DNA from: Closterium sp. NIES-65
Taxonomy: Eukaryota; Streptophyta; Zygnematophyceae; Desmidiales; Closteriaceae
Direction of reading: 5' to 3'
DNA: 64,000 bases
NCBI GenBank assembly: GCA_948144175.1
Contig: CANXME010000212.1
Coordinates: 1,356,001 to 1,420,000 of the forward strand
Positions 13,595 to 15,761 of this stretch are shown here, piece after piece (positions within the stretch are counted from its first letter, which is position 1; every line of letters begins with the position of its first letter). A model generated the notes under the pieces. The model worked only from the letters and a program-made list of their open reading frames with translations. It searched no databases and was not told the origin of the DNA. A program made the position numbers and the translations under genes.

Positions 13595-14090
13595 CGCTAC
13601 TTACTACTGCCTTTCCCTTCAGAGCGCGCAGCATCCATCAGGATCAGATTTGGGAGATTAGGATCATTCAATAGAGACCGTATGACAACATATACATCTG
13701 TAGTTTAAATAACCGTTGCACGTTGGAACCAATCACAATCTGCCGCCGTTTGGTATCGACGCTTCCCATCCACTTCCTCCGTTTTTGGGGTCGTTGCAAA
13801 CCCTTCAATACCACTCATCTTGTACCACATTGCAACAAATACTTAGTGACGTGAAGGGCCGAACCGAAACAGGCAGGGTGGCATTAACTATTTGGAGAGT
13901 CTAGCAATTGCCTATGCACAAAAGAGCTCTAGCACTCACCTAAATGACGGGACGATATCGTAGAGTAAGCACACAAAGTTCCCCCTCCAGTGCGATCTCT
14001 ATCGACTCCCAGTGCTCGTGAGCTTATAGAAACTGCATCTCCCATCGTTCCAAGTCTCTAATTGTTTCCCAAAAGTTCAGATCAGATGGT
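13595..14090. other. no gene seen
   Basis: No open frame with recognisable motifs, no repeat and no LTR was seen. It is presumably intergenic or intronic. Confidence 0.5.
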
Positions 14091-14229
14091 TGTCAGAATC
14101 CCAGCCACTAGACCACTGGGATAAAAGGGCTTGTTTGTGTAGCGGGTAAGTGCGCCCATAACCCCCCAGGCCAACGTGCCCGTCACCCTTCCTTAGGATC
14201 AATCAGGGATCACCAATGGACCTCTGACA
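14091..14229 (-). repeat. 3' terminal repeat of the TRIM
   Basis: A 139-bp copy, 3.6% different from the other. It lies away from the PBS, so it is the 3' repeat of a minus-strand element. Confidence 0.88.
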
Positions 14230-14248
14230 CCCCCCCGCACTGGGATGC

Positions 14249-14325
14249 CCGAAGTGCACACACCGGGATTCGAACCCGAGACCTTCGCTCTGATACCATG
14301 TCAGAATCCCAGCCACTAGACCACT
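14249..14325 (-). ncRNA. tRNA-like Pol III promoter/fold across the LTR-PBS junction
   Basis: On the minus strand, in order: a D-arm-like segment with A-box TGGTCTAGTGG; a five-base stem TCTGA / TCAGA closing a seven-base loop CATGGTA (the LTR tip plus the start of the PBS); a short variable region; and a T-arm with loop TTCGAAT and stem TCGGG / CCCGG. Arm sizes match a tRNA, and the first half resembles eukaryotic tRNA-Glu by eye. The acceptor stem does not pair, so it is not a tRNA gene. A Pol III promoter role is inferred. Confidence 0.5.
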
Positions 14326-14437
14326 GGGATAAAAGGGCTTGTTTGTGTAGCGGGTAAGTGCGCCCATAACCCCCCAGGCCAACGTGCTTGTAACCCTTCC
14401 TTAGGATCAATCGGGGATCACCAGTGGACCTCTGACA
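14299..14437 (-). repeat. 5' terminal repeat of the TRIM
   Basis: A 139-bp copy directly adjoining the PBS (minus strand). Its inner tip supplies half of the anticodon-like stem. Confidence 0.88.
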
Positions 14438-15761
14438 ATTGTGACCACTTGATTTAAACAGTTGTATGATCTCTGTAATGGATTCATTATGTAAACATTA
14501 CTTGCATGCAATGTAAGCTAACTCTTCTTCTGCGTTGCCTCTAACCGAACTCGGTGCATGGTCTGCCTCTCGTGACATTGGAATCTCTGCAACGCCCTCA
14601 CTACCCTTTTTGATATTGCCGTCGCCATCACCCTCTACTTCATCATTTTCCTCCAAAGGCGGTTGTTCACCCACGCGCCACGTTCAAGTTCTGGGATACG
14701 GCCTACACGGATGCATAGGGTAGCTAGCCAGTCATGTTCCTCAGGACACTATTTCTTTTAATACCGGCGAGAACGTAAGCGTGGAAAGTTCCTAAAAACA
14801 TATCCACATAACTCACATAGCTCCCAGGGCATAGGACTAAAGCGCCTGAACGGTCATTAGGGCGCCATGACAGCCACAAGCTTACGGACACGATGCGTTA
14901 CACGAACGGAGGGAGGGAAGGGTTCGATCGCAAGAACGCGCTCGGGACACTTCTGTTCAATCTCGCTATCGCATAACATACAGACACTTCAAAAGTGATC
15001 AGTCGATCAAAATTACATCCTTTAATGCTACGCTAAAGTAACAATAAGACCAATTTGCCATGTAAACAGGTTTATTCATTACCTGCAATGGATTTAGTGT
15101 GACTACTAATATCAGCACGTTGCATATCTCTAGCTATGCAGTTTTAGGAGGATGGTTCATCCATTAGTGTGCCCATGGCCAACCATTTAAATAGCCACAC
15201 TGGTCAGTTCTCTAAATCTTGCTGGGAAAAAAACCTTGCTAACGGTGCCAATGGTTGTTGACTAAGCCATATCGCCCACGCGTGATTCAAGATGCATACA
15301 GCAAAAAGTTCCACGTTTGATATAAAGCTCAAAGCAGCATGGTAGGTGGTCGGCGGGAGTCGTCTGCCAAGTACAGAGTAGCGCCATTAGCCAAAAGTGA
15401 GAGCAAACGGATACTGGCAGCGAGAAGACGAGTCATGCCCATTACCTTCAGACTCAGCTGCCATGTGCATCTTACGACAGTTGCAACACAAAACATAAGT
15501 GCTACGTGTACTCTCTTGATTTCCTGGGATGAATGCAACACCAATAGAGGCCCACGATCAAGGTTAGTCTATCATAAAGGTGTTCATTCTTGCGTTGCAA
15601 GCACTATGCAGCATACATCCGTTAGAGGTTACTTGCACTATTGGTGCTGTTCTGATAGGGGCAGACACTCTAGCACAGTTATCGTGATGAGTCTTTGAGC
15701 CGGTGGGGTGGTTCCCATACTGTGGATCTTCTTCATTTCTGCCTAGCATAACTGACACCGC
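14438..15761. other. no gene seen
   Basis: I see only short open frames without recognisable motifs and no repeats in this 1.3 kb. Confidence 0.5.

What the first reader, a model, noticed from the sequence alone, without database searches (positions are those of the whole stretch)
14249..14325. TRIM whose LTR end and primer site together form a tRNA-like fold with A and B boxes
The LTR tip TCTGACA and the PBS TGGTATCAGA pair as a 5-bp anticodon-like stem with a 7-base loop. It is flanked by an A-box-like TGGTCTAGTGG in the LTR and a perfect T-arm/B-box GGTTCGAATCC in the core at tRNA spacing. Only the acceptor stem is missing. A TRIM transcribed by Pol III from such a junction would be a LTR/SINE hybrid. 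Cassandra TRIMs carry 5S sequence in the LTR; I know of no case like this one, though I cannot search.
Basis: partly seen in the sequence, partly recalled or inferred. Interest (0 to 1): 0.72.

Follow-up and report, generated by a model that had tools for sequence, protein, structure and literature searches.

The report
Mini-retrotransposon with split tRNA-type promoter
A very short virus-like jumping element, present in thousands of copies in what looks like a green alga, carries the two halves of a tRNA-gene promoter on either side of its primer site, which suggests that it may be copied by the machinery that makes tRNAs rather than the one that makes messenger RNAs.

Summary
The window holds a complete 347-bp TRIM on the minus strand (14091-14437). 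At its 5' LTR/leader junction lie a canonical A box (LTR end) and a canonical B box (leader), starts 47 bp apart in this subtype and 44 bp in the other, as in tRNA genes. Genome-wide, exact patterns give 3082 A box+PBS and 2124 PBS+B box places, 0 in reversed controls. LTR end and leader align colinearly with the genome's own tRNA-Pro gene.

The 'tRNA-like fold' is not supported. The Rfam tRNA score is below threshold, a natural A-box-less control scores higher, folding is no better than shuffles, and the A box sits in a different, pair-preserving hairpin.

Best reading: a TRIMp3-type element (as Kojima's 2024 Helenus) whose Pol III promoter is split between LTR and leader, and so is complete only at an LTR-leader junction. 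Transcription is untested, and absence of a TATA box in the LTR turned out to be weak evidence. Also found: the LTR's most conserved stretch is complementary to the initiator tRNA's anticodon arm, and two insertions with chimeric outer LTRs join the TRIM's U3 to copia-like U5 at about the predicted start.

The parts
14091..14437 (-). complete TRIM, 347 bp, LTR-leader-LTR
   Evidence: 35 of 40 elements with two or more complete LTRs in the fetched loci have 5-bp target duplications with 0 or 1 mismatch
14299..14437 (-). 5' LTR, 139 bp
   Evidence: 139-bp direct repeat, 96% identical to the other copy
14091..14229 (-). 3' LTR, 139 bp
14230..14298 (-). internal leader, 69 bp (subtype INT1)
14287..14298 (-). 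primer-binding site TGGTATCAGAGC
   Evidence: exact complement of the 3' end of the genome's own tRNA-Met (CAT) gene plus CCA
14313..14323 (-). A box TGGTCTAGTGG in 5' LTR (LTR 115-125); second copy in 3' LTR at 14105-14115
   Evidence: exact in 97 of 114 distinct LTRs; 3082 A box+PBS places
14266..14276 (-). B box GGTTCGAATCC in the leader
   Evidence: 2124 PBS+B box places; exact in 33 of 37 INT1 copies
14339..14341 (-). CAA, possible Pol III start motif (LTR 97-99)
   Evidence: CAAG at LTR 97-100 in 104 of 114 distinct LTRs; plant motif placement from PMC11700998 passages; start itself inferred
14331..14334 (-). TTTT (LTR 104-107); in the 3' LTR at 14123-14126 it could be the Pol III terminator
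   Evidence: TTTT here in 105 of 114 distinct LTRs; another TTTT inside in 2 of 49 spans
14324..14330 (-). 5' arm of the A-box hairpin (ATCCCAG)
   Evidence: 7 of 7 pairs in 103 of 113 ungapped rows; pair next to the loop A-T 98, G-C 13 of 114
14306..14312 (-). 3' arm of the A-box hairpin (CTGGGAT)
14301..14305 (-).
   Evidence: present and in the MFE fold of the window copy; columns nearly invariant, so no covariation to test
14358..14372 (-). GGGTTATGGGCGCAC (LTR 66-80), 14 of 15 complementary to the anticodon arm of the primer tRNA; second copy at 14150-14164
   Evidence: strict scoring 4 (window type) and 0 (L055 type), lax scoring 10 and 6, of 1000 dinucleotide shuffles as good; lies in the most conserved stretch of the LTR
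14230..14236 (-). polypurine tract GGGGGGG
   Evidence: directly before the 3' LTR
14086..14090 (.). target-site duplication, ATGGT; other side ATTGT at 14438-14442, 4 of 5

Best explanation
A high-copy, recently active TRIM that is transcribed from a type-2 (tRNA-like) RNA polymerase III promoter split across its 5' junction. The A box is in the last 25 nt of the LTR, the B box is 10 nt (INT1) or 7 nt (INT2) past the 12-nt PBS, and the PBS fills the spacer. Inferred steps: Pol III starts about 16 nt upstream of the A box at the CAA (LTR 97-99), reads through the leader and the 3' LTR, and stops at the TTTT in the 3' LTR (LTR 104-107). The RNA then has a roughly 10-nt terminal repeat (AAGCCCTTTT) that allows strand transfer. 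Initiator tRNA primes at the PBS and the enzymes come from one or more Ty1-copia elements. Solo and 3' LTRs keep only the A box, so, unlike Cassandra or Helenus, only an LTR-leader junction is a complete promoter. Shown here: structure, boxes, spacing, conservation, copy number, primer match, recombination with a copia element. Inferred: Pol III use, start, stop, R length, and copia as the usual helper.
For: A and B boxes at tRNA-gene spacing: starts 47 bp (INT1) or 44 bp (INT2) apart; +12 and +54 in a typical type-2 promoter (PMC7279448 passages). Exact counts 3082 and 2124, controls 0. Box A lies among the 10 least variable of 129 LTR 11-mers; the least variable ones start at 64-69. The B box stays in both leader subtypes: of 20 fetched (of 41) A-box junctions lacking exact GGTTCGAATCC, 8 have the equally canonical GGTTCGATTCC, 11 have one to a few changes in the box, 1 runs into a copia-type leader. 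LTR and leader align colinearly to the genome's tRNA-Pro(TGG) gene, 0 of 1000 shuffles. CAAG in 104 and TTTT in 105 of 114 distinct LTRs. No TATAWA in 114 distinct TRIM LTRs. Two independent insertions with chimeric outer LTRs join TRIM U3 to copia-like U5 at about LTR 98. The two A-box deletions checked are post-insertional.
Against: No transcript data. The only TTTT lies between the presumed start and the A box, so Pol III must pass it in the 5' LTR yet stop at it in the 3' LTR; with a start 11 nt before the A box almost no R would remain. Absence of inner TTTT is expected by chance (458 and 451 of 2000 shuffles contain one). Absence of TATA is weak evidence: plain TATA occurs in 9 of 114 TRIM LTRs at scattered places and in 213 of 1000 shuffles, while 5 of 5 copia-type LTRs have TATA but only 1 of 5 TATAWA, and 294-441 of 500 of their shuffles have TATA too. 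One insertion without any A box (C2057) did integrate. Copies are closely related, so conservation partly reflects youth; the B box is among the 12 least variable of 59 leader 11-mers, no more. tRNA-Pro was chosen because its D arm resembles the LTR, so the shuffle test is not blind. LTR+poly(A) retrocopies gave 0 hits, which does not discriminate.
Confidence: 0.55

Rival explanations
1. Ordinary Pol II TRIM that captured tRNA-like sequence. The boxes are relics, and the LTR drives Pol II transcription without a recognisable TATA box.
For: Pol II is the usual retrotransposon promoter (PMC10853983 passage); chimeric and copia-linked forms carrying the same PBS and B box moved with another LTR or LTR end. 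The lack of a TATA box is no more than the LTR's composition would often give by chance. The chimera breakpoint follows CA, a usual poly(A) cleavage context (recalled).
Against: A box and B box kept in both leader subtypes at tRNA spacing; no shared TATA position in 114 distinct LTRs.
Confidence: 0.25
2. The conserved LTR end works as RNA structure: the 7-bp A-box hairpin is a packaging, dimerisation or U5-PBS element used by the copia particle, and its A-box match follows from tRNA ancestry.
For: The pair next to the loop changes together (A-T 98, G-C 13, one A-C, one A-A, one gap, no G-T); L065 has a second paired change.
Against: The hairpin does not explain the B box or its spacing. Energies of the folded junctions are no better than shuffles. 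The paired changes may be only one or two ancestral events.
Confidence: 0.12
3. The B-box-like leader motif is really an extended primer-binding site complementary to the T arm of the initiator tRNA.
For: T arms are near-palindromic; INT1 and INT2 leaders pair with the T arm at -14.7 and -14.4 kcal/mol.
Against: 49 and 60 of 500 shuffles do as well; alignment to the antisense tRNA is at chance (424 and 675 of 1000), while the sense tRNA-Pro match is not (2 and 15 of 1000).
Confidence: 0.04
4. Chance resemblance fixed in one master copy and spread by amplification.
For: Each box is short and the family is young.
Against: LTR match to tRNA-Pro 0 and 2 of 1000, leader match 1 and 3 of 1000, joint match 0 of 1000 shuffles; the boxes are retained while subtypes diverge elsewhere.
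Confidence: 0.04

Closest known systems
Helenus (TRIMp3; Kojima 2024, PMC10886601)
   Same: TRIM size, PBS, PPT, 5-bp target duplications in plants and fungi, tRNA-like A and B boxes, no credible tRNA product, tandem arrays reported for one family
   Different: In Helenus the tRNA-like sequence is in the LTR; here only the A box is, and the B box is in the leader beyond the PBS. The only plant listed there is Selaginella; this host looks like a green alga.
Cassandra (5S-type TRIM; PMC10853983 passages)
   Same: TRIM with a Pol III promoter in place of Pol II, methionine PBS
   Different: 5S-derived promoter inside the LTR; no 5S match here
SMART / FRetro129 with FRetro64 (PMC3281118 passages)
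   Same: Tiny LTR element linked to a copia partner; LTRs unlike the partner's
   Different: SMART shares its internal region with its partner. Here the usual copia leader lacks the TRIM leader in 9 of 10 sampled places; the tenth is an LTR in other sequence.
tRNA-derived SINEs (SINE2)
   Same: A and B boxes at tRNA spacing
   Different: This element has LTRs, PBS and PPT and makes 5-bp duplications
Ty3 bipartite PBS (PMC5371799 passages)
   Same: Initiator tRNA may be contacted at the PBS and again in U3
   Different: Here the second site is complementary to the anticodon arm and is untested

Membership tests
TRIM | short LTRs (about 100-350 bp), under 1 kb, PBS and PPT | tested here: met
   139-bp LTRs, 347 bp, PBS and G7 tract; size range from PMC3532108 passage
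TRIM | 5-bp target-site duplication | tested here: met
   30 of 40 perfect, 5 with one mismatch, 5 with two or more
TRIM | moved in trans by an autonomous LTR element | tested here: inconclusive
   Recombinants with a Ty1-copia element point to shared reverse transcription; mobilisation not tested
Helenus | tRNA-derived sequence inside the LTR, with box A and box B | tested here: not met
   A box in LTR, B box in leader
Helenus | box A and box B motifs and GGTTC conserved | tested here: met
   motif description from PMC10886601
TRIMp3 | promoter elements for RNA polymerase III | tested here: met
   boxes at canonical spacing
TRIMp3 | transcripts made by Pol III | not testable with these tools
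   no RNA data available
Cassandra | 5S rRNA-derived sequence in LTR | tested here: not met
   no 5S match over 14050-14480 at E up to 10
SMART | internal region shared with copia partner | tested here: not met
   copia leader differs from the TRIM leader in 9 of 10 sampled places
tRNA gene | cloverleaf with tRNA model score above threshold | tested here: not met
   18.9 bits against 29; ARAGORN 0 genes

The most novel reading that the evidence does not exclude
An LTR retroelement whose Pol III promoter exists only at the LTR-leader junction, with the primer-binding site serving as the spacer between A and B box, and whose RNA ends (CAA start, TTTT stop in the same ten or so LTR bases) give one of the shortest terminal repeats known. 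Each reverse-transcription cycle rebuilds the promoter at the 5' end only, and solo LTRs lack a complete one. It may also contact its primer tRNA twice: acceptor end at the PBS, anticodon arm in U3.
Probability: 0.4. Interest if true: 0.75.

Novelty: new variant of a known kind. Interest (0 to 1): 0.6.

Why it matters
The 2024 Helenus paper calls Cassandra the only validated Pol III-driven TRIM lineage, and how a Pol III transcript gets the terminal redundancy that reverse transcription needs is, as far as I know, open. Here start motif, A box and T-run sit within 30 bases of the LTR, thousands of copies can be compared, and natural chimeras mark the strand-transfer region, so the question becomes directly testable. 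A promoter rebuilt only at the 5' junction would also separate self-propagation from effects of solo LTRs on neighbouring genes.

Tried and rejected
Cloverleaf: rejected. Multi-locus Rfam scan of 10 loci (49893 bases): no tRNA row at E up to 10; with that much sequence a match of about 19 bits would fall below the limit, so this adds little. B box as antisense T arm of the primer: rejected. T-run avoidance as evidence for Pol III: not informative. Search for LTR+poly(A) retrocopies: 0 hits. Short LTR ends before the PBS (9 matches): 3 are chimeras (C10, C2096, C2057); 4 are A-box deletions of two kinds, each at two contigs with matching flanks, whose 3' LTRs still hold the A box (C1767 with one change, C1617 exact) or a changed but undeleted A-box region (C1174, C1789), so the deletions look later than the insertions; 2 (C1862, C2080) were not checked. 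In the hairpin count, 9 rows were matched at the wrong place by a fallback pattern; the column-based recount replaces it (1 gapped row dropped of 114). In one search, four of 54 distinct junctions run into other leaders (L049, L051 plus strand, L060 at 1707, L076 at 1734); all 54 were kept for the LTR columns. L009-L015 were left out of the LTR counts as duplicates of L002-L008. The 114 distinct LTRs come from loci chosen by similarity to the window copy (68) or by exact PBS+B box (46), so divergent copies are under-represented. Species name: not determined; a contig with tRNA genes carries a chlI frame, which by recalled knowledge points to the plastid of a green alga.

Full report
What is there. 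On the minus strand the window carries a complete TRIM, 14091-14437: two 139-bp LTRs (96% identical), a 69-bp leader, a 12-nt PBS and a G7 polypurine tract. The PBS is the exact complement of the 3' end of the genome's own tRNA-Met (CAT) gene plus CCA. Among 40 elements with at least two complete LTRs in the fetched loci, 30 have perfect 5-bp target duplications, 5 have one mismatch and 5 have two or more; five of the 40 are three-LTR tandem forms. Some copies have LTRs 99-100% identical (L061, L072, L077), so the family was active recently.

Boxes. The A box TGGTCTAGTGG lies at LTR 115-125 and the B box GGTTCGAATCC at leader 23-33. Starts are 47 bp apart here and 44 bp in a second leader subtype, INT2 (93 bp). 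A paper places box A near +12 to +22 and box B near +54 to +64 (PMC7279448, passages). In the 874-Mb genome, A box+N8-20+PBS occurs 3082 times and PBS+N4-24+GGTTCGAATCC 2124 times, with 0 in both reversed-pattern controls. PBS alone occurs 17425 times against 8 in its control, so most places with this PBS lack an exact B box. Intersecting the listed rows of both searches over the same contigs gives 59 of 100 A-box rows with exact B box and 59 of 90 B-box rows with exact A box. Of the 41 A-box rows without exact B box I fetched 20: 8 carry GGTTCGATTCC, 11 carry one to a few changes in the box, and 1 (L125) runs into a copia-type leader. A 21st, C35:104685, already held in L076 and L112, also runs into another leader. 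Of the 31 B-box rows without exact A box, 12 were already in hand: 5 (L057, L062, L063, L064, L070) have an A box with one changed base, and 7 (L049, L053, L054, L066, L071, L074, L076) have another sequence before the PBS and carry TRIM LTR sequence downstream.

Conservation. In 114 distinct LTRs mean variation per column is 0.048 overall and 0.015 in the A box; only 10 of 129 11-mers are as low, itself included, and the lowest start at 64-69. None of the 13 columns with a second state of at least 15% falls in LTR 94-138. In 37 INT1 leaders the B box is exact in 33, but 12 of 59 11-mers, itself included, vary as little. These copies are closely related, so this is moderate evidence.

tRNA origin. 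LTR and leader each align to the genome's tRNA-Pro(TGG) gene better than nearly all shuffles (LTR 0 and 2 of 1000; leader with PBS 1 and 3 of 1000, without PBS 2 and 15 of 1000; joined 0 of 1000), colinearly through A arm and T arm with the PBS in the anticodon-arm place. The choice of tRNA-Pro was prompted by the LTR sequence, so the isotype is tentative; no other tRNA except initiator Met was compared.

Fold. The tRNA covariance model gives 18.9 bits (gathering 29) for the window copy and 20.0 for a natural A-box-less junction. For an intact INT2 junction no tRNA row is listed; the clan's best is tmRNA at 8.5 bits and one lower match of the clan was left out. Energies of five junction stretches have z between -0.52 and 0.20. 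The A box lies in the loop of a possible hairpin ATCCCAR/YTGGGAT: 103 of 113 ungapped rows keep all 7 pairs, and the pair next to the loop is A-T in 98, G-C in 13, A-C in 1, A-A in 1 and gapped in 1 of 114.

Copia partner and natural chimeras. Some PBS+B box loci carry quite different LTRs. L108 and L109 hold Ty1-copia elements of about 7.3-7.5 kb (Pfam RVT_2, rve, gag_pre-integrs) with 100% identical LTRs, in which a TRIM unit (PBS-leader-PPT-LTR) sits exactly between the copia 5' LTR and the copia PBS. Of ten further places with the L109 LTR, nine show the plain copia leader and no TRIM unit, and the tenth is an LTR in other sequence. Two independent insertions have chimeric outer LTRs, TRIM U3 joined to copia-like U5 at ...AACA|TTCC (LTR about 98). 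One, at C2057, is a plain LTR-leader-LTR form without any A box (TSD ATGGG). The other, at C10 and again at C2096 with matching flank, has TSD TAGCT and encloses a further TRIM LTR with an exact A box and a changed B box. This is what strand transfer between two RNAs in one particle would leave, so this copia, or a relative, appears to share its reverse transcription with the TRIM. The join lies where a Pol III start is predicted, but it shows only that TRIM RNA reaches at least LTR 98 at its 3' end. In the pattern search that found them (exact U3 and PBS words) each appears as a single insertion.

Mechanism. CAAG at 97-100 in 104 and TTTT at 104-107 in 105 of 114 distinct LTRs give a possible start and stop; CAA triplets within ten bases upstream are reported to act as starts in Arabidopsis tRNA genes (PMC11700998, passages). 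The RNA would have an approximately 10-nt R. The weak point is the TTTT that Pol III must pass in the 5' LTR. The LTR has no TATAWA in any of 114 distinct copies, but this says little: plain TATA is in 9 of 114, 213 of 1000 shuffles contain it, and the copia-type LTRs (5 of 5 with TATA, 1 of 5 with TATAWA) have TATA in 294 to 441 of 500 shuffles. Of those five LTRs only L108 and L109 were shown to flank a copia frame. All of this paragraph beyond the motifs is inference.

A second primer contact? LTR 66-80 GGGTTATGGGCGCAC matches the antisense of the initiator tRNA anticodon arm at 14 of 15 positions (strict scoring 4 and 0, lax scoring 10 and 6, of 1000 shuffles for two LTR types). It is exact in 94 of 114 LTRs, and five copia-type LTRs show no comparable match. 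Ty3 uses a bipartite PBS with a second part in U3 (PMC5371799, passages). This was found in passing, after several comparisons, and needs an independent test.

Literature. Helenus (PMC10886601; abstract, Results, Discussion, tables read) already establishes TRIMs with tRNA-type promoters; in it the tRNA-like sequence is in the LTR, and Selaginella is the only plant listed. I found no description of a promoter split between LTR and leader in the searches (0 papers), which cover open-licence papers only, and of which I opened few; the supplementary files of the Helenus paper were not seen.

Verdict. The boxes are real and very unlikely to be chance; the fold is not supported; Pol III use is more likely than not but unproven. 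It is a new variant of a known kind.

Noticed in passing
window 14358-14372 and 14150-14164 (LTR 66-80): Lies in the most conserved stretch of the TRIM LTR and is complementary at 14 of 15 bases to the anticodon arm of the primer tRNA (initiator Met); possible second primer contact or packaging site.
   Followed up: partly
L108 397-780 and 7764-7894; L109 355-730 and 7492-7618: Copia elements with 100% identical LTRs in which a TRIM unit is inserted exactly at the PBS.
   Followed up: partly
L054 1385-1922; G000:C2057:61230-61625 (L151, L152): Insertions with chimeric outer LTRs (TRIM U3 + copia-like U5) and perfect 5-bp target duplications; the L054 one encloses a further TRIM LTR with an A box.
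   Followed up: yes
L051 plus strand 2169, L060 minus strand 1707, L076 minus strand 1734: TRIM LTRs followed directly by other PBS-bearing leaders, suggesting recombination with more than one partner family.
   Followed up: no
L109 (C31): The copia LTR recurs on C31 at steps of about 7.1-7.7 kb, as in a tandem array.
   Followed up: no
L108 877-1570 and 4762-4952; L109 825-1713: Copia leaders and coding regions hold short tandem repeats.
   Followed up: no
L094 1724-2794: A contig with tRNA genes encodes magnesium chelatase subunit I, probably plastid DNA; the host is probably a green alga.
   Followed up: partly
C1174/C1789, C1767/C1617, C10/C2096: Pairs of contigs with matching TRIM loci and flanks: likely haplotype or segmental duplicates in the assembly, so genome counts may be inflated.
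   Followed up: no
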